A stretch of 47,509 bases of DNA. Origin: a bacterium. GTDB taxonomy: Bacteria; Bacteroidota; Bacteroidia; NS11-12g; UBA955. The translations under genes were made by a program, and so were the position numbers. The notes beneath the pieces were generated by a model. That model did not search any database, had not been told where the DNA came from, and saw nothing but the letters and a program-made list of their open reading frames with translations. Positions 24,780-41,627 of the stretch are shown here, piece by piece. The DNA is taken from positions 1 to 47,509 of the forward strand of contig JAQSCZ010000019.1 of NCBI GenBank assembly GCA_029945665.1, given 5' to 3'. Each line of letters begins with the position of its first letter. Within the stretch, counting starts at the first letter, position 1.

Positions 24780-25997
24780 ATGACCTTATACTTTGCCCTT
24801 ACAATATTAATTTGCCTTTCGGCCGGGTTCGCTTTTTTAAATCAACATTTACTAAAACTCCCCTTTGTAATAGGTATTTTTATTTTATCTACGATGCTTT
24901 CACTGTTTATAATTAGCTCCAAATTATGGCTAAATCTACCTGTTGAAGAAATTAGAAGCTATATTGAATTGGCCCATATCGACAAAATAATACTCAATTT
25001 TCTACTGGGATTCTTACTCTTCGCCGGTGGACTTCATACCGATTGGAACAAGCTTAAATTACAAATTAGACCTATTGCAACTTTTGCATTAGCTGGTGTA
25101 TTGCTTTCAACACTGCTTATTGCCTTCTTGTTTTTTGGACTTATGCAGTTGCTTAATTTACAAATAGATTTTATATACTGCTTGATTTTTGGTGCATTAA
25201 TATCCCCTACTGACCCCATTGCAGTGTTGGGAATTTTAAAACAAGCAAATGTGCCACCTAGAACAGAGTATACGATTATTGGTGAAAGTTTATTTAACGA
25301 TGGTATCGGTGTAGTTGTTTTCATCACCCTTTTGGACACTTTGAATACCGGACTTTTTAGCTTTTCTCATTTTGGAACCCTATTTTTCCAAGAAGCCGTT
25401 GGAGGCATAGTAATGGGTTTAGTAATGGGTTATAGTCTTTATTTATTTCTAAAATCGGTAGACCATTATGAAACAGAAGTGTTGTTAACACTTGCATTTG
25501 TAATGGCTGGATATACCTTTTGCAACTACTTGCATATATCAGGAGCCTTGGCAATGGTGGTTATGGGATTAATGGTAGGAAACTTTAGAGAAAGTTTAAC
25601 AATGAGCACGCATACTAAAGAATATGTTCACAAATTTTGGGAACTGGTCGATGTAATTCTCAATGCTATTTTATTTATTCTGATAGCATTTGTGCTCATC
25701 GTCATTGAATTCAAAACAACCTATATTATCGTAGGCATCATTTCAATTCTGATTATTTTAGTATCAAGATTTATCATTGTCTATTTACCTCATAAAGTGG
25801 TTCCAAATCTTTTAAAATTAACAAATAAAGAAGCTACAATTATCAGCTGGGGAGGACTTCGTGGCGGATTGTCCTTAGCATTGGTACTATCATTGCCCGA
25901 TAGTGAACCTAAAAATATACTATTAATTTGTACTTACTTTTGTGTGTTATTTAGTATTGTTGTTCAGGGACTCACCATTAAAAAAATTGCGAAGTAG
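24780..25997 (+). CDS. Na+/H+ antiporter, CPA1 (NhaP-like) family
   Basis: The protein has 405 residues with about twelve membrane helices and almost no C-terminal tail. Landmarks are F-L-L-G-F-L-L-F-A-G-G-L-H near 74-86, A-L-I-S-P-T-D-P-I-A-V near 139-149, and G-E-S-L-F-N-D-G-I-G-V-V-V-F near 168-181. The Asn-Asp pair of the last is the ion-binding site of CPA1 antiporters. W-G-G-L-R-G-G-L-S-L-A-L-V lies near 355-367. The inner-membrane protein exchanges Na+ (or K+) for H+, serving pH and salt homeostasis. A small membrane protein gene follows after 20 bp and may be co-transcribed. Confidence 0.93.
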   Translation: MTLYFALTILICLSAGFAFLNQHLLKLPFVIGIFILSTMLSLFIISSKLWLNLPVEEIRSYIELAHIDKIILNFLLGFLLFAGGLHTDWNKLKLQIRPIATFALAGVLLSTLLIAFLFFGLMQLLNLQIDFIYCLIFGALISPTDPIAVLGILKQANVPPRTEYTIIGESLFNDGIGVVVFITLLDTLNTGLFSFSHFGTLFFQEAVGGIVMGLVMGYSLYLFLKSVDHYETEVLLTLAFVMAGYTFCNYLHISGALAMVVMGLMVGNFRESLTMSTHTKEYVHKFWELVDVILNAILFILIAFVLIVIEFKTTYIIVGIISILIILVSRFIIVYLPHKVVPNLLKLTNKEATIISWGGLRGGLSLALVLSLPDSEPKNILLICTYFCVLFSIVVQGLTIKKIAK

Positions 25998-26017
25998 ATT
26001 TTGTGATTTTGAAAATT

Positions 26018-26590
26018 ATGTCATTAGAAACCATCCATATTTCAGCAAGCTATAGAAAGCGATTCATGGGTTTGTTTGGTGCCTTATCATTTGTTTTAGT
26101 GGGCGCCTATCTCATATACTTACCCGCAGAGGAGGGCGATGGATTCTATCATTATTTCACGCCCGCAAAAATAAGCGGATGGGCTTCTATCCTATTCTTT
26201 GGAAGTTGCACGATTGTGATGCTATATTACTTGAAAAATAGTCAACTTGGTTTACTAATCTCAGATATGGGCATTACAGATTATTCGAGTCCGGTAAGTG
26301 CTGGCTTTATTCCATGGTCGGATGTGCTAGATATACAAGTGATTCAAATAGAAAAGCAACGACTGATTCTGATACTTGTACAAGATTCAGATGTGTATAT
26401 CAATCGACAAAAAAATAAATTTAAGAAAGGTGTGATGCAATTGAACGACAAGTATTATGGCACGCCTATTCATATCACGGCAAATGGTTTGAAAATTAAA
26501 TTTAATGAATTAGAAGCGCTATTGTTTCAACGCTTCAAACAGGTATGCGAATCAACAAACAGGAATGGGTTTACCATAGAATCCGAGTAA
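26018..26590 (+). CDS. STM3941-like membrane protein
   Basis: ATG 26018 gives 190 residues; GTG 26003 would add five. Two hydrophobic segments, about 19-37 (L-F-G-A-L-S-F-V-L-V-G-A-Y-L-I) and 55-74 (G-W-A-S-I-L-F-F-G-S-C-T-I-V-M), precede a PH-like beta domain. That domain includes G-L-L-I-S-D-M-G-I-T-D-Y, G-F-I-P-W-S-D-V-L and P-I-H-I-T-A-N-G-L-K. This two-helix plus W-x-D/E-I layout is typical of STM3941-family proteins of unknown function. The antiporter gene ends 20 bp upstream. An inverted-repeat operator-like site lies 124 bp downstream of its stop. Confidence 0.75.
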   Translation: MSLETIHISASYRKRFMGLFGALSFVLVGAYLIYLPAEEGDGFYHYFTPAKISGWASILFFGSCTIVMLYYLKNSQLGLLISDMGITDYSSPVSAGFIPWSDVLDIQVIQIEKQRLILILVQDSDVYINRQKNKFKKGVMQLNDKYYGTPIHITANGLKIKFNELEALLFQRFKQVCESTNRNGFTIESE

Positions 26591-26713
26591 CGAATAAGGT
26601 GCCTTCCGATTTACCAAAATGCAAATAACTGGTCAACTTACCTAGTATCAAATTCATAACTTCTAAAAAATCACAAGTAACTATTTAAATTAGGGCGCTT
26701 CATTGTGATAAAT

Positions 26714-26737
26714 AAAACATACCGATTGGTATGTTTT
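26714..26737. promoter_or_regulatory. Perfect inverted repeat, TetR-type operator candidate
   Basis: AAAACATACC-GATT-GGTATGTTTT is a perfect repeat with 10-bp arms. ACATACC-n4-GGTATGT is a common operator shape for TetR-family repressors in Bacteroidota. It lies 59 bp upstream of the gene at 26797. No tetR gene is in the window. A terminator role is possible because more T follow, but the stem has only four G-C pairs. Confidence 0.6.
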
Positions 26738-26796
26738 TACAAAAATTGAACCTTTTCCTATTTTCTTGAGAACTTTTATGTTAATTTGAAATTAGA

Positions 26797-27399
26797 ATGA
26801 CTATCCAAAACGAGCAGACGATTATCACAACGCGGGCCAGTATCAAGCTAATTGTGCTAGGACTATTATGCGGCGTGCTTTTTGGTTGTTTTGCAGATAT
26901 TTTTATTTTATCAAGTCCCAAATTGTTTCAACTCAATGCGATTCATAAGAACTGGCTATGTTTCACCATTGGTTTTACAACAAGTTGTCTATGTATCTTG
27001 CCACTTAAAATTATCAGTCTTACAAAGACTACACTTGTTATAAGCAGGCCATTGGTATTCATGGAAAAAGTAATTCCTTTGGAACAAATCATTGGCATTA
27101 AAGAACAAATTTATTCGATTCACACTGCTGGGGCATCTAATTTTGGAATTATTAGTGCACTGTATTTTGGAAATCAAATGAAAATCGAAATGAGTAACAC
27201 CAAAATTATAAGGATAAATTCATTCGATATAGGCGACTACGAAAAACTATGTCCATTGTTAATGCAGAGCAAAGGTTTAAAGGCTAAAATGGGGCAAATT
27301 CCTCCAAGGTTTTATCGGGAATACCATTGGCTAATTGGAATGTTTATACTTGCAATAATTTTAGTAATAGTGCTATTTAAGTTTAATGAACCGACATGA
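26797..27399 (+). CDS. Membrane protein with central PH-like domain, function unknown
   Basis: The protein has 200 residues. Two N-terminal hydrophobic segments (about 17-38 and 50-70) and one near the C-terminus (about 176-196) frame a soluble part. That part has L-V-I-S-R-P-L-V-F-M-E-K-V-I-P-L-E-Q-I-I-G-I-K-E and the end I-R-I-N-S-F-D-I-G-D-Y-E-K-L-C-P-L-L. This resembles the strand pattern of bacterial PH-like (PH_10/YcxB) domains, though I cannot name a family. Its TGA overlaps the next ATG (ATGA at 27396-27399), so the secreted protein downstream is translationally coupled. The operator-like repeat upstream may control both. Confidence 0.7.
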   Translation: MTIQNEQTIITTRASIKLIVLGLLCGVLFGCFADIFILSSPKLFQLNAIHKNWLCFTIGFTTSCLCILPLKIISLTKTTLVISRPLVFMEKVIPLEQIIGIKEQIYSIHTAGASNFGIISALYFGNQMKIEMSNTKIIRINSFDIGDYEKLCPLLMQSKGLKAKMGQIPPRFYREYHWLIGMFILAIILVIVLFKFNEPT

Positions 27400-28076
27400 A
27401 ATATATAATATTCACACTATTTTATTGGCTTATTTGCCCTGTAAAATCTCAATCTTGTAATTGCTTAAAAGATTCAACATTGGCATACAGCATGCCTTCA
27501 TGTGATACCATTCAATTCAAAAATGGATCATTGATTTACTGGCAATTTGATTGCGATTTTGCTTGGTTAACTTTCGAAACCGTTCAAGGAACCAAAGAAG
27601 TTATAGACAATTTTGATTCGAACTTGGGTGAATTAATCGACAAGTTAGGTCTTGAATTCGAAGCAGAATACAAGGCAGGGTTCTTAATGGAACGACCAAC
27701 ATGCTCTGGATCCGATTGTCCCATGATTTACCAATGGATGAATGCAAACACTGGAAAAACTGAAAAATATTTTGAAAATGTGATAGAGGTTTACAAAGAT
27801 TCCATTCATCATTTTATGATTAATTTTAAAGATGAAGAATGGAATTCAATTTTAGTTTTTGATATGGACAATTGCGATACATTTGAAATAGTATTGCCTA
27901 TAAAGTCAATCAGCATGACCTTGAATTCGGAAGATGACTTTTATTTACACGCTTGGGATTTATTTGCACCAGCTGCTGTAGTAAATCAACAACTGTGCCT
28001 TACGTATCAATACAACGAGCGTTTTTCAACGGGATTGAAGCAAAAAAACAGCGTATTCTTAAATTTGAAAAATTGA
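27396..28076 (+). CDS. Secreted Cys-containing protein, function unknown
   Basis: The protein has 226 residues. A signal peptide (about 1-18, F-T-L-F-Y-W-L-I-C-P-V-K-S-Q-S) is followed by C-N-C-L-K-D-S, M-P-S-C-D-T-I, F-D-C-D-F-A-W, R-P-T-C-S-G-S-D-C-P, D-N-C-D-T and Q-Q-L-C-L. The many Cys suggest disulphides in a periplasmic or surface protein. No known domain is recognised. It overlaps the upstream membrane gene by four bases. A third envelope gene follows after 74 bp, giving a membrane, secreted and lipoprotein series. Confidence 0.7.
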   Translation: MKYIIFTLFYWLICPVKSQSCNCLKDSTLAYSMPSCDTIQFKNGSLIYWQFDCDFAWLTFETVQGTKEVIDNFDSNLGELIDKLGLEFEAEYKAGFLMERPTCSGSDCPMIYQWMNANTGKTEKYFENVIEVYKDSIHHFMINFKDEEWNSILVFDMDNCDTFEIVLPIKSISMTLNSEDDFYLHAWDLFAPAAVVNQQLCLTYQYNERFSTGLKQKNSVFLNLKN

Positions 28077-28136
28077 GTACCCATTCAAAATCTGATGATA
28101 TAGAAAGGATTCATCAAACTACCCAAGATGTTAATT

Positions 28137-28144
28137 TATATTTG
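28137..28144 (+). promoter_or_regulatory. -7-like box TATATTTG close to a start codon
   Basis: It matches TAnnTTTG and ends 6 bp before the ATG at 28151. A transcript from it would be almost leaderless. No -33 TTG is seen at normal distance. Confidence 0.35.
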
Positions 28145-28150
28145 TAATTC

Positions 28151-28906
28151 ATGAAAATAATCTGCCAAATCTATCCATTCATTTTAATTGGATTATTTGC
28201 CTGCAACAATGCAGCCCAAGGTGTGCAAATTGAAAACTCAAAACCGATGGTTCGCACTAAACCGATTGCTAAACTTTTGTACAATAACAATGGTCTAATA
28301 CTTGCGAACGAAATGACATTGTATGACGCTTACAAAAACCCAATTAAAACCGTTCAAGTGCCGTTTGGGGAATATGTGACCATTGATACTATAAGCGAGG
28401 AAAAATTTGATTTAACAAATGGCATAGACAGATGTAATCTTCACAATTTTGTAAAAGTAAAAGGTGACAATATCAACGGATGGGTGTATGGAAAATATCT
28501 GTTTGAAGCTGAATTAAAAGGTCGCGATACTATACTTACTTTAAATGGAATCACATTTAAGATTATTCCAACTAAGAATTTCAATATTGGTGTATACGAT
28601 GAGATAGAGGAAGGCCTATCCACTTGCGAGATGACTTATAGCCCAGTGCTATTTTATAACAGCCTTTTCAATAAATACGAATATTTACCAATCGTGGATG
28701 AAAATTATCCTGATCATTTTTTTACCCTCGATAACCATGATGGCTGGTTAGATAAGATTAGAAGCATTGAATACACTAATCAACAGTTATTACTCAATAT
28801 AGAAAGGGAATGCCAAGAGGGCTTTGCGGATATACAAATAGCAATTAAAATTGACGGAAAACAATCGACCGCAAAATTACTTAAGATTAGCAGGCGCGAA
28901 GGGTAA
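28151..28906 (+). CDS. Putative lipoprotein with SH3-like segment
   Basis: This 251-residue protein has a signal ending in the lipobox G-L-F-A-C, with Cys18 as the lipidation site. Residues about 40-115 include V-P-F-G-E-Y-V-T-I-D and F-V-K-V-K-G-D-N-I-N-G-W-V-Y-G-K-Y-L. The latter looks like the last strands of a bacterial SH3 domain (V-K-x-x-G-x-x-G-W-V-x-x-x-Y-L). The remaining 130 residues are unrecognised. It is likely anchored in the inner or outer membrane facing the periplasm. It follows the secreted protein gene by 74 bp and could belong to the same unit or have its own near-leaderless start. Confidence 0.75.
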   Translation: MKIICQIYPFILIGLFACNNAAQGVQIENSKPMVRTKPIAKLLYNNNGLILANEMTLYDAYKNPIKTVQVPFGEYVTIDTISEEKFDLTNGIDRCNLHNFVKVKGDNINGWVYGKYLFEAELKGRDTILTLNGITFKIIPTKNFNIGVYDEIEEGLSTCEMTYSPVLFYNSLFNKYEYLPIVDENYPDHFFTLDNHDGWLDKIRSIEYTNQQLLLNIERECQEGFADIQIAIKIDGKQSTAKLLKISRREG

Positions 28907-29219
28907 ATAGAGTTTTTTGCTCATTTCAACCTGCTACTTTCTTTAAAACACAAAGCGGGGCTTATTAACATGCTCAGATAAAAATTAAATCGGAATTGAA
29001 GTTCTTCCAAATACTTATTGACTATAGCCATCAGTTTCTAAACCATAGGGAGACTATATTGAAAAGAGCATAGGCTATTAAATCCCAGAATTATTATTTA
29101 TGAAATATCCAAATGCTGCTTATATTTGTCAAGGCTACTTCCATGAATAATCATTTATCAATGAGTAGGCTCAACCACTAAACAACCTAAAAATAACTCA
29201 ACAACTACCCAATCAACCA
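28907..29219. other. Intergenic region and leader of the SPFH gene
   Basis: 313 bp without a gene. It contains a -7-like TATATTTG at 29121-29128. The last 50 bp before the ATG (29170-29219) contain no G at all and are mostly A and C, an unstructured leader without a Shine-Dalgarno sequence. Confidence 0.5.
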
Positions 29220-31121
29220 ATGGAAAATGTATTCGCAAATTACGGCTGGATTCTTATTGTACTACTTAGCATTGTATTTTATAAATTTATCTTAAGATTT
29301 ATATTCGGTATGGTTATCGTACCAGAAGATAAAATAGGCCTTGTAACTAAAAAATTCGTGCTTTTTGGAGAGCATAAAGAACTGCCAGATGGCCGAATTA
29401 TAGCCACCTTAGGCGAAGCAGGTTTTCAAGCCAAAACTTTGGCTCCAGGTTTATATTTTTGGAAATGGGTATGGCAATATGAAATTACCATGTCACCATT
29501 CACTATTATTCCAGAGGGAAAAATTGGCTTGGTAATGGCCAAAGATGGTTCCGAAATTCCGACTGGCAATATTTTAGGAAAAGATGTTGAAAGCGACAAT
29601 TTTCAAGACGCTTCTAATTTTCTTTTAAATGGTGGACAACGCGGAAGACAAACGACTTATATAACAGCTGGTTCATACAGAATTAATACTTTACTTTTCC
29701 AAATATCTACCACAGACATGGTGCGAATACAAGAGAGCATGGTAGGCATCATTACAACCTTAGATGGTAGACCAATTGATGCGGGACAAATTGCAGGTAA
29801 AAACATTGATGGGCACAATAATTTCCAAGATTTTGACACCTTTCTTAACAGCGGTGGTAACCGTGGCTTACAACCTCAAGTGATACTTGCTGGTTCATAT
29901 AATTTAAATCCGTGGGCGATACAAATTGAAGAAACGCCAATGACCGAAATACCAATTGGTTTCGTAGGTGTTGTAATTTCGTATATTGGTTCGGAGGGTC
30001 ATGATTTAACTGGCATTGATTTTAAGCATGGCAATATTGTAGAAAAAGGTTCTAAGGGTGTTTGGTTGGAGCCACTTGGCCCAGGCAAATATCCAGTGAA
30101 TAAATACATTATGAAAGTAGAGCTAGTGCCAACAACTAACTTGGTTTTAAATTGGGCCTCAGCAAGAAGTGAAGCACACGATTTGGATAAAAATTTATCA
30201 ACGATTACTGTGCGTTCGAAAGATGGATTTCCATTCAACTTAGATGTTGCACAAATTATTCATGTACCTACCACCGAAGCACCAAAAGTAATTGCCCGTT
30301 TTGGAAATATGGTCAACTTAGTTTCCCAAGTTTTAGAACCAACCATTGGCAACTATTTCCGAAATTCAGCACAGGATAGCGATGTAATTGCTTTCTTATC
30401 GACCCGTAAAGAACGCCAAGAATCGGCCAAAGCGCATATCAAAAAGGTATTGGATGAATACAATGTGAATGCCGTTGATACATTAATAGGAGACATCGTT
30501 CCACCTGAATCTCTCATGAAAACATTAACGGATCGTAAATTAGCAGAGGAACAGAAAGTAACCTACGACACCCAAAAACGCGCACAAGAAACCAGACAAG
30601 GAATGGAAAAAGAAACAGCCATTGCCGATATGCAAAAAGACATCGTTAAAGCACAACAAAGTGTTGAAATTGCAGAACGCACAGCTAGCGCAACTGTTAA
30701 AAAAGCGGAAGGGGATGCTGCGGGTGTAAAATTAGCAGTTGGTGCTGAAGCGGAGGCTACCAAATTAAGAGCTTATGCCGAAGCAGAATCTACAAAGGCA
30801 AGAGCGCAAGCCGATTCTGAAGCCATTAAATTAAAAGCATCTGCTCAAGCTGAACAAATTTCTTTAACAGGTTCGGCTGAAGCTGGTAAGATTTTAGCCA
30901 TCGGTAAATCAACAGCCGAAGCATACGAATTAGCAGTAAGTGCGTTGGGTGGCGAAAACTTTACTAAATATAAAATAACGGAAGAATTAGCTAAAGGCCA
31001 TATTAAGTTAATTCCAGATGTATTGATAGGCGGCAACGGCGGAAGTGCGATGGACGGCTTATTAGGCCTAAAATTGATGGAAATGATGGACCCTAAACCG
31101 AAGGAAGATAAAACAGAATAA
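29220..31121 (+). CDS. SPFH/band-7 (flotillin-like) membrane protein with four N-terminal repeats
   Basis: The protein has 633 residues. A hydrophobic segment at 10-33 anchors the protein. Four related beta-rich modules follow at about 35-90, 98-163, 171-237 and 246-300. Each begins x-x-x-x-G-L/I/V-V and ends A/P-G-x-Y-x-x-N/K. The SPFH core comes next (T-I-T-V-R-S-K-D-G-F-P-F-N-L-D-V near 328-343, R-F-G-N-M-V and Q-V-L-E-P-T-I-G-N-Y-F-R-N). Residues about 430-575 form a long Ala/Glu/Lys-rich coiled coil. Flotillin-type proteins oligomerise on membranes and organise protein complexes. The exact role here is unknown. Its stop lies 7 bp from the stop of the convergent TPR gene. Confidence 0.9.
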   Translation: MENVFANYGWILIVLLSIVFYKFILRFIFGMVIVPEDKIGLVTKKFVLFGEHKELPDGRIIATLGEAGFQAKTLAPGLYFWKWVWQYEITMSPFTIIPEGKIGLVMAKDGSEIPTGNILGKDVESDNFQDASNFLLNGGQRGRQTTYITAGSYRINTLLFQISTTDMVRIQESMVGIITTLDGRPIDAGQIAGKNIDGHNNFQDFDTFLNSGGNRGLQPQVILAGSYNLNPWAIQIEETPMTEIPIGFVGVVISYIGSEGHDLTGIDFKHGNIVEKGSKGVWLEPLGPGKYPVNKYIMKVELVPTTNLVLNWASARSEAHDLDKNLSTITVRSKDGFPFNLDVAQIIHVPTTEAPKVIARFGNMVNLVSQVLEPTIGNYFRNSAQDSDVIAFLSTRKERQESAKAHIKKVLDEYNVNAVDTLIGDIVPPESLMKTLTDRKLAEEQKVTYDTQKRAQETRQGMEKETAIADMQKDIVKAQQSVEIAERTASATVKKAEGDAAGVKLAVGAEAEATKLRAYAEAESTKARAQADSEAIKLKASAQAEQISLTGSAEAGKILAIGKSTAEAYELAVSALGGENFTKYKITEELAKGHIKLIPDVLIGGNGGSAMDGLLGLKLMEMMDPKPKEDKTE

Positions 31122-36068: not shown

Positions 36069-39000
36069 TTATCTCAAGAGGGCAACGATGCCTCTGAAAG
36101 TAAATTCATCTTTATTGTCATATTGTCCAGAAACTTTCCAAACATAATTCTCTTGTTCGCACAGTTGGCCATTAAAAATACCATCCCACTCTGCATTAAT
36201 ATCGTTAGTTTCAAATACTTTTTGACCCCATCTGGTAAATATACTAAAGCTAAAATTATCAGGGCTTACATTCACTAATGAGGGTTTAAAACCATCGTTT
36301 CTTCCATTGTTATTTGGGGTAAATGCTGTTGGCACATAGCAATAACCAGGCAACATGGTTGTTAAATAAGATGGCTTGAATAGTGTATCCGAACAGTTAT
36401 AATTATTTGTTGCAATTAAGGTAACGCCAAACCTTCCACTCACATTCAAAGTGAAATTAGGATTTCTCATGTTAGAGGTATTTAAAATATTTCCAACACT
36501 ATCCGACACCGTCCATTTTTGTGCAATCGAATTATTGGTGCGATTGGTTATAAAGAAATTTGCATTTGGCAAACTCACAAAGCGTTGGTCGACAGTAAAG
36601 TCAGCTGTTGGGGTTGGATAAACCGTAATCATTCCTGTATAGGTTACAGTTGACGATCCGCCCACACCAGTTGCTATTAATGTTACATCCCAAGTACCTT
36701 CAAACTCAAATTTATGTATTGGATTTTCTTCTTCAGAATCTGGCGAACCATCGCCAAACACCCAACGGTAACTTGTGGCATGTGCGGTTGTATTTATAAA
36801 ATGAACCACTAGTGGCGAGCAACCTTCAAATTTATCCGCACTAAATTTAACAATTGGTTTAGCATTTTGAATGAAAATTGGTTTGATAATAAAATCGGAA
36901 CATTGTTTATTGTAAACCGTAAATCTTACTTCCACATTTCCAGCATTAACGTAAGTATGGTCAGGATCTTTAACAAAATTGCTGGCGTCATTAGTTGAAC
37001 CATCACCAAAGTCCCATTCGAATTTCAAATTATTAATATTGGTAGATGTAATCATTGGTTTTCCAACAAAGCCAACAATGGCATTTGGCAAAATCGGTTT
37101 TCTCATTAGATAATCAAAATCTGCAGTAGGGCGCTCAATTACATTAAATACATCACTACCATCGGTGCTATCTACACAACCATCTTTATCGTATCCGAAC
37201 AACATAATTCTATAGGTTCCAAACTGATTGTAAACATAAGATGGATTGGTTTCTGTTGACAAGCCACCATCACCAAATTTCCAAAAATATCTAACGGTAT
37301 TCACTGATTCATTTTTAAAATCTACCACGCCTCTTTCGCAGGCTTCAATTTGATTTTTGCTAAAACGCACTTTCATTTTTGGTTTAACCTTAATGGTAGT
37401 AGATGTTGTATCTGCGCAGCCATAAGCATTCTTTACAACTAATTCTACTGAGTAAAAGGTATCAACAACTTGAGCAGAAGGTAGAACCTTTGAGAAACTA
37501 GAAGATACATAGACACTGCCATCATTAAAAGTCCACTCATTCTGAGTAAAATTCTTTGACTTATTAATGAATTGATAATACCCAATATCGCAAGGATTAT
37601 TTCTAGAGGCTTTTAAATCAGCACTTGGTTTTGGATATACCAAAATAATAGTTGATGCTGTATCATAACAGTTGAAACGGGATCTGCGCAAAGTTAATTT
37701 TGGCGAATAGGTAATGTTCGATAAATTGGTATAAGTATGGGTTACCGCATCGGTTGTAGCCTCGCCGGAATTATCTCCAAACTCCCAATAGTCCGTTTTA
37801 AATAATTTTGAATTATGACTCATTTTAATAGTCAAATCAGTACAACCAATGCTTTTATCCAATACCATTAAATCCTTTGGCTTGTTAACCAAATAGACAT
37901 CCTTTTTGGTTGTGTCTTTGCAATTGGCTGAAGAACTTACTTCCAATGTTACATGATAGACTGTATCTCTATAATTCAATGGATTGATATAGAACTTATG
38001 ACGTGGATTGATTAGTGTTGAAGAGGTGTTATCGCCAAATTTCCAAGTATATCTATAACCACCTAAAGTATTATTAACAAAATTCACATTCTCCTTAGCG
38101 CACAATGAATCTTTTGCTACAACGAAGTTTGCGTCTGGACGACCAAGCACTAAGACTTGTTGAAAAACGGTGTCGCTCAAGCAACCGTATGGCGAAGTAA
38201 CAGCATGGCTAATGTAATATGTGGTATCGAAAATCTTAATACCTGGCAATATGATGTTTTGATTGGCGCCAGAGGCATTCATTTGGCTACCGATTCCCCA
38301 AAAGTATGTATTGGGATTTACAGATGCATCTTTTAATGCAACTTGCAAAGGCGCGCAACCTTTCTTAGTTGAAACAGTAAAACCTGCAACTGGCTTTGGA
38401 TGAACTGTCACGCTGCCAGCAGCAGTATCTTTACAGCCATACTGACTTGTGGTTTCGTACCAAACTTTAAAGGCAGTATCCTTATTTGAATGGTTATAGA
38501 AAACAACTGAATCGTTCATATCAAAACTAATTACACCATTGCCAAATTTCCAATTGTGGGTTAAAGCACCACCATCATAAGCAACTGAGTTATTAATGGT
38601 GTTAATATTAAGCGGTGTACAACCACTTACTACATTTAAATTAAATTGTGCCTTAGGGTCAGGATGCACAGTAACATTAATTGTGCTGCTATCTTTACAT
38701 CCATGCTCGCTATATCCTACCAATTTTGTTTTGTAAACAGTATCTTTTGTTAAGGCCGCTTTAAATGAAGCACTGAAATTTTTAGACGTTGAAGTTTGTC
38801 CGTTACCAGCATTCCATTTAAAAGTCATGATTCCTATTGAACCAGTATCACGGGGATTCGATTGGTTGTTATAATTTACTTTTAACAATTGACAACCGCT
38901 TAGCTTATCAGCAACAAAATTAATAAATGGTTGCGGATAAACTTGTATTTGTTTGGCAACTGAATCATAACAACCATTGATTGTAGTGGTCGTTAGGGTA

Positions 39001-41627
39001 ACAGTATAGAAAGTATCTTTTGTTGCACTCGAAGTAAAGCTAGCATTTGGATTTACCGCACTAGAAGATGCACCGTTGTTAAATAACCATTTATATTTCA
39101 AGGTACTAATATTGTTGCCATTATTGGTTGTTGATTGATTGGTAAAAGTAACACTCAATGGACCACAACCATTCACCGTATTAGATGTAAACGCCGCAGT
39201 TGGACCAGGAAATACTTTTACAATAACAGATGTTGAATCTTTACAACCAGCCCAGTTGGTTACGTTCAATTTAACCTTATAAGTCGTATCAACTTTTTTA
39301 GCTGAAGGGTAATAAACAGTTGGATTAATAACACTGCTAGATGTTCCATTGCCTAAATTCCAAACATTGGTATAAGCGCTTGTTGAAGCATTGTTAAATA
39401 TTACTTTAAGAATTCCGCAACCTGAATCCCTATTTGTAACGATGGCCTTAGGATTCTTAGGTGTAAAATAAATTTTCTCCATTGAATCACCCTGGCAAGA
39501 AGAGGCGCTGGTTGCAATTAATTTTAATTTAACAAGCGTTGTATCGTTATAAAGTATAGAGTCAGATAAATTGGCGGCGGTAGAGATTAATTTATTATTT
39601 GCATACCATCTAAAATCTTTACCATAAATACTTGTATTTGTAAATTTAAAAGTGGCTGGTGTACAAGCATAAGCTTGATTGATTGTAAACTGTGCTTTTG
39701 CACCTGGTTTAATTCTTACATTGTGGTAAATGGTATCTTTACAACCTGAGCCAGTGCCAGCAATCAATCTAATATTGAACAACCCAACAGTACTATACAC
39801 ATGTTTATAGATACCACTATTTGTAGTCGATGCCGTTGTATTATCACCAAAAGTCCAATCATACTGATTTGAATTGATGGATTGGTTATTGAATTTTAAT
39901 GAATCAAAAGTACAGCCAACGGTATCGCCAACTAATATAGCTTTTGGCAACCCGAAGGCAGTAAAGGTTTGACTGAAAGTATCCAATCCGCAACTGTCGC
40001 TAACAATTAAACGAACAGTATAATTACCGGCTGTACTGTATACTTTAGTCGCAGGATTAGCAGATGCACTTGTTGTGCCATCGCCAAAATCCCATGAATA
40101 GCTTGGATTAACAAAATACGAAGTCGTATTATTAGTATAGGTAACAGTCACTGGAATACAAGTGCTGTTAATATTTGCAAACATAGCTGTCGGTTTGTCG
40201 TTAACTCTAAAAGTCTGTGTTATAGAATCGGCGCCACATTGATTAGCAACTTTTAATTTGATAGTGTATACACCTGCATTTATAAATGCGTATGACAACA
40301 ATGAATCCGTATATTGAGTAGAGCCATTTTTATCTGTGATGGTCCAAGTACGGGTATATCCTCTGCCTTTAGAAGTATCTTTAACATTTACATTTAAAGG
40401 TTTGCAACCTCTATTAATATTGTATACAAAACCAGCTTTAGGTTTGTAATAAATTCTTAACAACGATTTAAAAGTATCTTTTCCGCAACCGTTTTTTGAA
40501 ATCAAGGTTACATAATAATCACCCTCTGTGGCATATTTGTGAGCTTGATCTGCTTTGCTGCTGGTCCAACCCACAGTTGTTCCATCCCCAAAATCCCAAA
40601 AGTATTCCTTTAAATCTGGCAATAGACAATACTTATCATCGGTCGCATTTTGAAAGATATAATTTTTTGTAGGATCACAAGTTGTAGTAACTGTCCATAA
40701 CGCTTTGTCTTTATCACTAACATCCACTGGATTCCAAGTTGCTAATGAGCTACCACAGGCATTCTTTGCTTTAATTTGCAAAATAGCATTACAAACACCC
40801 TTGGTATATCGGTGATAAATTGTGTCTGCAAAACTACTCGCTGGTTTGGTTTCATTATCCCCATTGCCCCAATCAATATCGAAGGTGGTATTATCAGAAA
40901 TATTATACGATGAATTGACAATTCTCAATATAAAAGGCACACAACCTCTATTTGCTCCAGATGGCGGACCAACAATACCCGCAGTTGGCTGTCTTTGGTT
41001 ATAGGCAGTGCCATAAACAGTATCGATACAACTGCCGTTCTTGGTCACAATTTTAAATGTAAACACGCCCAATTGATTATATAAGTGGGTTTTAACATTT
41101 CCTGGAGCAAAATCACTTCCAGTAGTATCCATTAAACCATCGCCCCAAAATATTTTAAGTTTCTTTAAGGTATCATTTGATTCTACCTTAATTGAAAAGG
41201 TATCTGGATCGGCTATGTATTGTATACAATTAATCCAATATGGATTGGTATTAGCATTCCCTGATTGATCAATGATAGATTTCGCATTGCTGGTAACTGA
41301 AATAGTTGCAGCAGAAGAAGAATCGATACAACCACTTGAATCCTTAACAAATAATTTTACAGTGTTATTTCCTGTTCTCTTTAACAAGAAGGTAATTGAA
41401 TCCAATCCTTTTGTGGAATCCACAATCAAATTGTTCACTTTCCACCAATAGGTGGCTTTGTTTTTAAAATTACCTGTAGAAGTGTTTTTTGCCTTTATAA
41501 TGTATGGCAAACCACAGGTGTGAGTTGATGAATAAGTGAACGCTGGCGAGATGTTACACGCGTGAGTGTTTTTACCCAACAAAATTAAAACTACTAAAAC
41601 TAAACTTTTTAAACTAAAACTTTTCAT
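36069..41627 (-). CDS. Giant PKD-repeat surface protein with T9SS type B (gliding_CHU_C) domain
   Basis: The protein has 1852 residues. A signal peptide (1-23) is followed by about twenty Ig-like PKD modules of 75-100 residues. Clear copies read Y-F-W-D-F-G-D-G-T-T, Y-S-W-D-F-G-D-G-T-T, Y-T-W-K-F-G-D-N-T-S, Y-F-W-K-F-G-D-G-G-L, F-E-W-D-F-G-D-G-S-T and Y-R-W-V-F-G-D-G-S-P. Many modules open with a single Cys in G-C-x-P-L-x-V. The last 90 residues form a type B sorting domain: C-Y-V-P-T-A-F-T-P-N-N-N-G-R-N-D-G-F, F-T-R-W-G-Q-K-V-F-E, E-W-D-G-x-F-N-G and Y-V-W-K-V-S-G. It should be exported through T9SS and stay on the surface as an adhesin or matrix component. No enzymatic domain is seen. Confidence 0.93.
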   Translation of the reverse strand: MKSFSLKSLVLVVLILLGKNTHACNISPAFTYSSTHTCGLPYIIKAKNTSTGNFKNKATYWWKVNNLIVDSTKGLDSITFLLKRTGNNTVKLFVKDSSGCIDSSSAATISVTSNAKSIIDQSGNANTNPYWINCIQYIADPDTFSIKVESNDTLKKLKIFWGDGLMDTTGSDFAPGNVKTHLYNQLGVFTFKIVTKNGSCIDTVYGTAYNQRQPTAGIVGPPSGANRGCVPFILRIVNSSYNISDNTTFDIDWGNGDNETKPASSFADTIYHRYTKGVCNAILQIKAKNACGSSLATWNPVDVSDKDKALWTVTTTCDPTKNYIFQNATDDKYCLLPDLKEYFWDFGDGTTVGWTSSKADQAHKYATEGDYYVTLISKNGCGKDTFKSLLRIYYKPKAGFVYNINRGCKPLNVNVKDTSKGRGYTRTWTITDKNGSTQYTDSLLSYAFINAGVYTIKLKVANQCGADSITQTFRVNDKPTAMFANINSTCIPVTVTYTNNTTSYFVNPSYSWDFGDGTTSASANPATKVYSTAGNYTVRLIVSDSCGLDTFSQTFTAFGLPKAILVGDTVGCTFDSLKFNNQSINSNQYDWTFGDNTTASTTNSGIYKHVYSTVGLFNIRLIAGTGSGCKDTIYHNVRIKPGAKAQFTINQAYACTPATFKFTNTSIYGKDFRWYANNKLISTAANLSDSILYNDTTLVKLKLIATSASSCQGDSMEKIYFTPKNPKAIVTNRDSGCGILKVIFNNASTSAYTNVWNLGNGTSSSVINPTVYYPSAKKVDTTYKVKLNVTNWAGCKDSTSVIVKVFPGPTAAFTSNTVNGCGPLSVTFTNQSTTNNGNNISTLKYKWLFNNGASSSAVNPNASFTSSATKDTFYTVTLTTTTINGCYDSVAKQIQVYPQPFINFVADKLSGCQLLKVNYNNQSNPRDTGSIGIMTFKWNAGNGQTSTSKNFSASFKAALTKDTVYKTKLVGYSEHGCKDSSTINVTVHPDPKAQFNLNVVSGCTPLNINTINNSVAYDGGALTHNWKFGNGVISFDMNDSVVFYNHSNKDTAFKVWYETTSQYGCKDTAAGSVTVHPKPVAGFTVSTKKGCAPLQVALKDASVNPNTYFWGIGSQMNASGANQNIILPGIKIFDTTYYISHAVTSPYGCLSDTVFQQVLVLGRPDANFVVAKDSLCAKENVNFVNNTLGGYRYTWKFGDNTSSTLINPRHKFYINPLNYRDTVYHVTLEVSSSANCKDTTKKDVYLVNKPKDLMVLDKSIGCTDLTIKMSHNSKLFKTDYWEFGDNSGEATTDAVTHTYTNLSNITYSPKLTLRRSRFNCYDTASTIILVYPKPSADLKASRNNPCDIGYYQFINKSKNFTQNEWTFNDGSVYVSSSFSKVLPSAQVVDTFYSVELVVKNAYGCADTTSTTIKVKPKMKVRFSKNQIEACERGVVDFKNESVNTVRYFWKFGDGGLSTETNPSYVYNQFGTYRIMLFGYDKDGCVDSTDGSDVFNVIERPTADFDYLMRKPILPNAIVGFVGKPMITSTNINNLKFEWDFGDGSTNDASNFVKDPDHTYVNAGNVEVRFTVYNKQCSDFIIKPIFIQNAKPIVKFSADKFEGCSPLVVHFINTTAHATSYRWVFGDGSPDSEEENPIHKFEFEGTWDVTLIATGVGGSSTVTYTGMITVYPTPTADFTVDQRFVSLPNANFFITNRTNNSIAQKWTVSDSVGNILNTSNMRNPNFTLNVSGRFGVTLIATNNYNCSDTLFKPSYLTTMLPGYCYVPTAFTPNNNGRNDGFKPSLVNVSPDNFSFSIFTRWGQKVFETNDINAEWDGIFNGQLCEQENYVWKVSGQYDNKDEFTFRGIVALLR

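What the first reader, a model, noticed from the sequence alone, without database searches (positions are those of the whole stretch)
26797..28906. Unrecognised envelope trio: membrane, Cys-containing secreted and SH3-like lipoprotein
The first two genes overlap by ATGA, the third follows within 74 bp, and none belongs to a family I can name. Together with the operator-like site this could be a small uncharacterised regulated envelope system.
Basis: partly seen in the sequence, partly recalled or inferred. Interest (0 to 1): 0.5.

Follow-up and report, generated by a model that had tools for sequence, protein, structure and literature searches.

The report
Dispersed palindrome beside orphan envelope genes
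Three neighbouring unknown genes turn out to be an ordinary lineage-specific cluster, but the palindrome in front of them is one of about fifty near-identical sites scattered through the genome, mostly behind genes, and is probably the binding site of a regulator found only in this small group of bacteria.

Summary
The three ORFs are real at the stated coordinates (ATGA overlap, 74-bp gap, operator-like palindrome at 26717-26734) and match no Pfam, NCBIfam or PADLOC family. The trio is not a conserved system: gene 3 has relatives in 2 of 58 other genomes and gene 2 in 4 of 107, none beside the other trio genes; gene 1 has none in 58.

The lasting result is the palindrome. ACATACC-NNNN-GGTATGT has 49 exact copies in this 3.8-Mb genome, 18-24 in four sister species, none in the other 12 genus members searched. 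The centre varies (20 kinds), the outer A and T runs do not. Among imperfect copies, 18 carry one arm change and none a compensating pair. Copies favour stop codons and convergent gaps and avoid divergent ones. One TetR clade occurs in exactly these five of 17 genus genomes, with a near-cognate block just before its start codon in all five.

Best reading: binding sites of this autoregulated TetR protein. A transposase-linked, REP-like origin and a terminator role remain live rivals: some copies lie near Y1 transposase genes, and one relative without the TetR has another repeated hairpin. Binding is inferred, not shown.

The parts
26714..26737 (.). Palindrome AAAACATACC-GATT-GGTATGTTTT, one of 49 perfect-arm copies in the genome; core 26717-26734
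26003..26590 (+). STM3941-family protein gene, upstream neighbour; its stop is 126 bp before the palindrome; accessory (2 of 17 genus members, own included)
   Evidence: NF041635 E 1.3e-42
26797..27399 (+). Gene 1: 200-aa orphan with hydrophobic segments, start 62 bp behind the palindrome; no intact relative found
27396..28076 (+). Gene 2: 226-aa Cys-containing orphan with signal-like N terminus, overlaps gene 1 by ATGA; relatives in 4 of 107 other genomes of the order, not beside the other trio genes
28151..28906 (+). Gene 3: 251-aa lipoprotein-like orphan with a weak SH3 hint; relatives in 2 other genus members, not beside the other trio genes

Best explanation
The trio is a lineage-specific run of orphan envelope-type genes, possibly one transcript (genes 1 and 2 overlap), in an accessory stretch that also holds the STM3941 gene. 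The palindrome in front of it is one of about fifty dispersed binding sites of a TetR-family dimer (TetR_N plus TetR_C_13) found in this genome and four sister species. SHOWN: the copy numbers, exact arms with variable centre, preference for gene 3' ends, recurrence at some orthologous places, a TetR clade limited to the same five of 17 genus genomes, and a near-cognate block directly before the TetR start codon in all five. INFERRED: that the TetR protein binds the palindromes, represses itself through the weaker promoter site, and that the strong sites behind genes act as road-blocks, decoys or DNA-organising sites; at 26717 a bound dimer would separate STM3941 transcription from the trio and could repress the trio.
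For: 49 exact ACATACCNNNNGGTATGT in the own genome, reversed control 0; 18, 24, 21 and 22 in G005, G006, G011, G014 (control 1 in G014); 0 in the other 12 genus members. Three bases outside the arms are A/T at 93-96%; 20 central tetramers among 49 copies. Half-sites outside palindromes hardly enriched (39 seen, 30 expected, reversed word 55). In loci held from the five genomes: 92 perfect sites, 18 single arm changes (4 of them keep a G-U pair), 0 compensating pair changes. A-run before and T-run after are equal in the gene's direction (3.96 and 4.0, 26 sites), as for a symmetric protein site. Behind tex the site is present in 5 of 5 of these genomes (G005 with one changed arm base), 0 of 10 others, with a different centre in all five. 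TetR clade with 100/100 support in exactly the five (the two TetR matches left out of the tree belong elsewhere). Block ACATACC-(A)NCT-AGTATTT before the start in all five. A site with up to 3 mismatches in 18 occurs in the loci of 5 of 73 TetR genes, all five of this clade; in 3 of the 5 the promoter site itself is among them.
Against: The five genomes are one clade (tex 92-93% identical), so co-occurrence is one event. The TetR promoter site has two arm mismatches, more in the flank in G000, and in G005 a spacer one base short. Three of the five TetR loci (L043, L148, L253) were fetched so as to hold palindromes and are longer than the rest. Only 4 of 66 sites with both neighbours called lie between divergent genes, where a repressor regulon would be expected. 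Sites with up to 1 mismatch lie within 1 kb of 6 of 11 Y1 transposase genes of these genomes, against 0 of 29 control TetR loci. A relative without this TetR (G012) has its own repeated hairpin, TTCAACC-GGTTGAA, 4 copies in 400 kb, a similar density. Three G000 sites have no counterpart in G014. The sample is centred on perfect sites. No binding data exist.
Confidence: 0.47

Rival explanations
1. Untagged REP-like repeat: a short extragenic palindrome spread by a tyrosine (Y1, IS200-like) transposase, without a dedicated binding regulator; the TetR promoter happens to contain a decayed copy.
For: Location behind 3' ends and between convergent genes is what has been described for REPs (passages of PMC3733652). 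Y1 loci of the five genomes have a site with up to 1 mismatch within 1 kb in 6 of 11 (three of them look like one orthologous place), other genomes 0 of 7, control TetR loci 0 of 29 (18 of the 25 Y1 matches were examined, the 7 weakest, none in the five genomes, were not). G014:C22 has sites on both sides. One Y1 group, judged by eye, occurs in all five. At one locus the site sits in about 143 bp absent from G014. Sites are clumped in G014, 11 of 22 within 5 kb against 1.2 expected. G012 carries another repeated hairpin, 4 copies in 400 kb.
Against: No GTAG or CGTC tag next to the palindrome and no tagged hairpin near the Y1 genes of these five genomes. RAYT genes are described as always flanked by two REPs (PMC2817692 passages); neither of two Y1 genes of the own genome is, and 1 of 11 in the clade is. 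Copies share only about 26 bp with variable centres, and behind tex the place is kept in all five genomes, unlike recent copies.
Confidence: 0.27
2. Bidirectional intrinsic terminator with a shared stem: the palindrome works as an RNA hairpin with flanking A/T runs that ends transcription of the preceding gene (here STM3941).
For: Gene ends 1-60 bp from a site: 22 in G000, 9 in G014, 14 in G006; convergent gaps hold 25 sites against 9.7 expected by length; the hairpins fold at -8.1 to -21.4 kcal/mol (26 sites); 4 of 18 single changes keep a G-U pair.
Against: A terminator needs pairing, not one sequence: 0 compensating pair changes against 14 that break a pair. No longer T-run on the transcript side. 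14 of 90 sites lie inside called ORFs. At 26717 it is 126 bp behind the stop, and the terminator scan of 25900-29300 did not list it.
Confidence: 0.2

Closest known systems
SlmA (E. coli) and RefZ (B. subtilis), TetR-family proteins with chromosome-dispersed sites (passages of PMC6657595)
   Same: TetR-family protein; dozens (SlmA) or five (RefZ) sites spread over the chromosome; RefZ sites nearly palindromic and conserved in position across a genus
   Different: Here no link to FtsZ or division is known; the protein is TetR_C_13 type; among 17 genus genomes it is in five; its own promoter carries a near-cognate site
KstR (Rv3574), mycobacterial TetR-type repressor with a large regulon (title and start of abstract of PMC1995591)
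   Same: One TetR-type repressor with a large number of targets
   Different: As recalled, its sites are promoter operators of metabolic genes; here most sites lie behind genes
REP/RAYT repeats (PMC3733652, PMC2817692, passages)
   Same: Short palindrome, tens of copies, between convergent and tandem genes close to 3' ends, some near Y1 transposase genes
   Different: No GTAG/CGTC tag; transposase not flanked by two copies in the own genome; symmetric arms with fixed sequence and free centre
NemR / YxaF-type TetR repressors
   Same: TetR_N plus TetR_C_13 domains; NemR chain matches at E 2.9e-7 and YxaF at 2.3e-7
   Different: Best solved match is an uncharacterised TetR (3qbm, E 8.4e-15); similarity of the operators is recalled only, not tested

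Membership tests
TetR-family operator set | Dyad-symmetric site of fixed sequence | tested here: met
   7-bp arms exact in 49 copies, reversed control 0; outer AAA/TTT 93-96%
TetR-family operator set | Cognate TetR gene in the same genomes and with a site in its own promoter | tested here: met
   Clade in 5 of 5 palindrome genomes and 0 of 12 other genus members; imperfect promoter site in all five; one clade, so one event
TetR-family operator set | Sites lie in promoters of regulated genes | tested here: not met
   Divergent gaps 4 seen, 16.3 expected; convergent 25 seen, 9.7 expected
TetR-family operator set | Protein binds the site | not testable with these tools
   needs EMSA or ChIP-seq
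REP/RAYT repeat | GTAG or CGTC tag at one end | tested here: not met
   flanks are A-run and T-run; no tagged hairpin near Y1 genes of the five genomes
REP/RAYT repeat | Y1 transposase gene flanked by two copies | tested here: not met
   own genome: C55 one imperfect site on one side, C10 none; both sides in 1 of 11 clade loci
REP/RAYT repeat | Extragenic, near 3' ends, depleted between divergent genes | tested here: met
   but 14 of 90 sites lie inside called ORFs
Intrinsic terminator | Stem held by pairing, T-run on the transcript side | tested here: inconclusive
   T-run present but equal to the A-run; no compensating changes
DNA uptake sequence | Half-site enriched on its own across the genome | tested here: not met
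   39 seen, 30 expected, reversed word 55, in 264,625 bases
SlmA/RefZ-type chromosome-position factor | TetR protein that inhibits or positions FtsZ from dispersed sites | not testable with these tools
   dispersed sites shown; division role unknown

The most novel reading that the evidence does not exclude
A Bacteroidota TetR-family protein uses some fifty identical-armed sites behind genes as a chromosome-wide scaffold or division landmark (a nucleoid-occlusion or DNA-bridging factor of SlmA/RefZ kind), rather than as promoter operators; the site beside the trio is one anchor of that network.
Probability: 0.1. Interest if true: 0.8.

Novelty: new variant of a known kind. Interest (0 to 1): 0.42.

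Why it matters
The trio itself is an ordinary set of orphans. The palindrome set matters if the TetR reading holds: a repressor-type protein whose strong sites sit behind genes would be an unusual network, young enough (five species of those searched) to watch how a binding-site network arises, and it gives one concrete protein and one concrete site to test.

Tried and rejected
Conserved trio: rejected, genes scattered. Gene 1 as a paralogue of the STM3941 protein: no BLASTP alignment at E 100 or better. Defence system: no PADLOC match at E 0.1 or better. Known RNA: no Rfam match in the window at gathering scores. Structure: gene 3 model mean pLDDT 60, no PDB fold match at E 0.001 or better; gene 1 model mean pLDDT 45, not used. 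DNA uptake sequence: half-sites not clearly enriched. Synteny from 80 flotillin loci (up to 6 kb a side): no trio gene found by tblastn at E 1e-4. Sister genomes without the palindrome: in 400,000 bases of G012 (2,500 read N) the commonest stem, TTCAACC, has 4 copies; in 210,942 bases of G008 plus G013 the commonest has 2. 160,000 unselected bases of G014 held no palindrome copy; about 1 is expected at its average density. Turnover: three G000 site neighbourhoods with orthologues in the unselected G014 stretches had no site there. Literature: searches were seen as listings, and of three papers (PMC3733652, PMC6657595, PMC2817692) I saw passages; no listed title or abstract start describes this palindrome. 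One search looked for the two arm strings: 176 papers hold both, 15 were listed, none was opened.

Full report
OBSERVATION. None matches Pfam or NCBIfam above cut-off, and none matches PADLOC. The gene before them, 26003-26590, is an STM3941-family protein (NF041635, E 1.3e-42). The operator-like site is ACATACCGATTGGTATGT at 26717-26734.

THE TRIO IS NOT A UNIT. Among 59 genomes (own included), gene 3 has a match in G013 and G012 besides the own genome, the same in 108 genomes of the order; in G013 it follows a gene that reads as gatB, in G012 it stands among unrelated genes. Gene 2 has matches in G010, G014 (a fragment) and a marginal one in G008; with an alignment and 108 genomes also in G103 and G057, and no longer in G008. 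The loci of these relatives (about 1.5 kb a side, cut at contig ends; G010's copy begins 76 bases from a contig end) carry no other trio gene. Gene 1 was searched in 59 genomes; it has only a marginal second hit in its own genome with four stops (E 8e-4). A scan of the GTDB contig collection, which reaches close relatives only, found none. The STM3941 gene is itself accessory: 2 of 17 genus members. In 80 flotillin loci from named records no trio gene appears; in the one with 96% flotillin identity another gene precedes flotillin. So the trio is a lineage-specific run of orphans, possibly one transcript, with envelope-type signals judged by eye; AlphaFold models were too weak to assign a fold.

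THE PALINDROME IS A GENOME-WIDE SET. The own genome holds 49 exact copies of ACATACCNNNNGGTATGT, reversed control 0. Four genus members hold 18 (G005), 24 (G006), 21 (G011) and 22 (G014, control 1); the other 12, several of them incomplete assemblies, hold none; of the 42 genomes outside the genus G028 has 2 and G043 has 1. I read the surroundings of all 49 own sites, all 22 of G014 and 19 of the 24 of G006; sites of G005 and G011 were seen only where they lie in loci fetched for other reasons. The three bases on either side are A and T at 93-96%; the centre shows 20 different tetramers, mostly purine-N-N-pyrimidine; beyond that the flanks look unrelated except for local duplications (C44, C82, C94). 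A tandem array of 10.9 units of 112 bp at C36 carries a variant with one changed arm. Half-sites alone are not clearly enriched: 39 seen, 30 expected, 55 for the reversed word; for the longer AAACATACC 18 seen, 14 expected, 9 reversed.

ARMS ARE KEPT AS SEQUENCE. Nine pairs or triples of perfect sites stand at apparently orthologous places in two or three of G000, G014 and G006 (gene names such as tex, CorA-like, TrpF-like are my reading). These were found as perfect sites, so their equal arms are by choice; what is informative is that centres mostly and flanks often differ. tex was then tested in the genus: the site lies 28-30 bases from the first base of the stop codon in all five genomes, including the two (G005, G011) that had not been chosen for it, G005 with one changed arm base; the centre differs in all five; 10 other genomes with a tex match have none; 2 of 17 had no full tex match. 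In the loci held from the five genomes there are 92 perfect sites, 18 with one arm change (14 break a pair, 4 give G-U), 14 with two unrelated changes and none with a compensating pair change; 10 array copies were set aside (this sample is centred on perfect sites). Against full conservation: three G000 sites have no counterpart at the orthologous place in unselected G014 stretches, in one case because about 143 bp are absent; and only 2 of the 5 TetR genes have a site behind their stop.

WHERE THEY LIE. Of 66 sites with a called neighbour on both sides, 25 are between convergent genes (9.7 expected from gap lengths), 37 between tandem genes (40.1) and 4 between divergent genes (16.3); 14 more lie inside called ORFs and 10 at stretch or contig ends, 90 in all. 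The gene calls are simple longest-ORF calls of 80 aa or more. A-run and T-run are equal with respect to the gene's direction (26 sites). In G014, 11 of 22 sites have a neighbour within 5 kb against 1.2 expected; in G000, after leaving out local duplicates, 11 of 44 against 4.6.

A TETR CLADE FITS THE SET. TetR_N gave 73 matches in the 17 genus genomes. Of 71 in a tree one clade, supported 100/100, has one member in each of the five palindrome genomes and none elsewhere; the two left out belong to another group. Two of its proteins were scanned and have TetR_N and TetR_C_13. Loci of 5 of 73 TetR genes contain a site with up to three mismatches in 18, and these five are this clade; three of these loci had been fetched so as to hold palindromes. 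The block ACATACC-(A)NCT-AGTATTT stands just before the start codon in all five while the DNA further upstream differs between G000/G014 and the other three. In G000 and G014 a site also follows the TetR stop by about 20 bp. The five genomes form one clade by tex identity, so this co-occurrence is one event, not five.

THE RIVALS. Sites with up to one mismatch lie within 1 kb of 6 of 11 Y1 transposase genes in the five genomes, 0 of 7 in others, and 0 of 29 control TetR loci; three of the six look like one orthologous place. This and the 3'-end location recall REPs. G012, which lacks palindrome and TetR clade, has another repeated hairpin, TTCAACC-GGTTGAA, 4 copies in 400 kb, absent from the samples of the other genomes; such repeats may therefore be a habit of the genus. 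Against REPs, tag and double flanking are missing.

HOW IT MOST LIKELY WORKS. I take the palindrome as the dyad site of the TetR dimer, which represses its own gene through a weaker site just before the start codon. What the strong sites behind genes do is open: road-block at gene ends, titration, or DNA organisation as for SlmA and RefZ (PMC6657595 passages). In the window, a dimer at 26714-26737 would stand between STM3941 and gene 1, 62 bp before its start, and could stop read-through or repress the trio. Binding, repression and any effect on the trio are inferred.

VERDICT. Observation confirmed; interpretation as a regulated envelope system only partly supported. The trio is ordinary; the palindrome set is worth a binding test.

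Noticed in passing
G000:C36:2256-3490 (L029): Tandem array of 10.9 copies of a 112-bp unit, most with a palindrome variant in which one arm reads ACAGACC instead of ACATACC.
   Followed up: partly
L176 / L148 (G014:C22:56.0-58.2 kb): TetR gene and a Y1 transposase gene are neighbours, with palindromes between and around them; one palindrome is extended into a longer inverted repeat behind the TetR stop.
   Followed up: partly
L293:3848, L293:19025, L298:11381, L298:19480 (G012): Another dispersed hairpin, TTCAACC-5 bases-GGTTGAA, 4 copies in 400 kb of a relative that lacks the ACATACC palindrome; not seen in the samples of G000, G014, G006, G008 or G013.
   Followed up: partly
L044:2544 and L162:1535: A palindrome copy lies inside a glycosyltransferase-like coding sequence (NIPSGMF) in both G000 and G006, in the wider neighbourhood of the TetR gene.
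   Followed up: no
L016 (G000:C74:78-470): Possible decayed paralogue of gene 1, E 8e-4, with four in-frame stops.
   Followed up: no
L041, L043, L031: Local repeats with motifs such as CCACGAAGTGGTTGAA and GCCACAGATTCACAG adjoin several palindromes.
   Followed up: no
window 36069-41627 and L057: A 1852-aa PKD-repeat, gliding-type protein (my reading) has a close counterpart right of flotillin in L057, so synteny holds on that side while the side with the trio differs.
   Followed up: no
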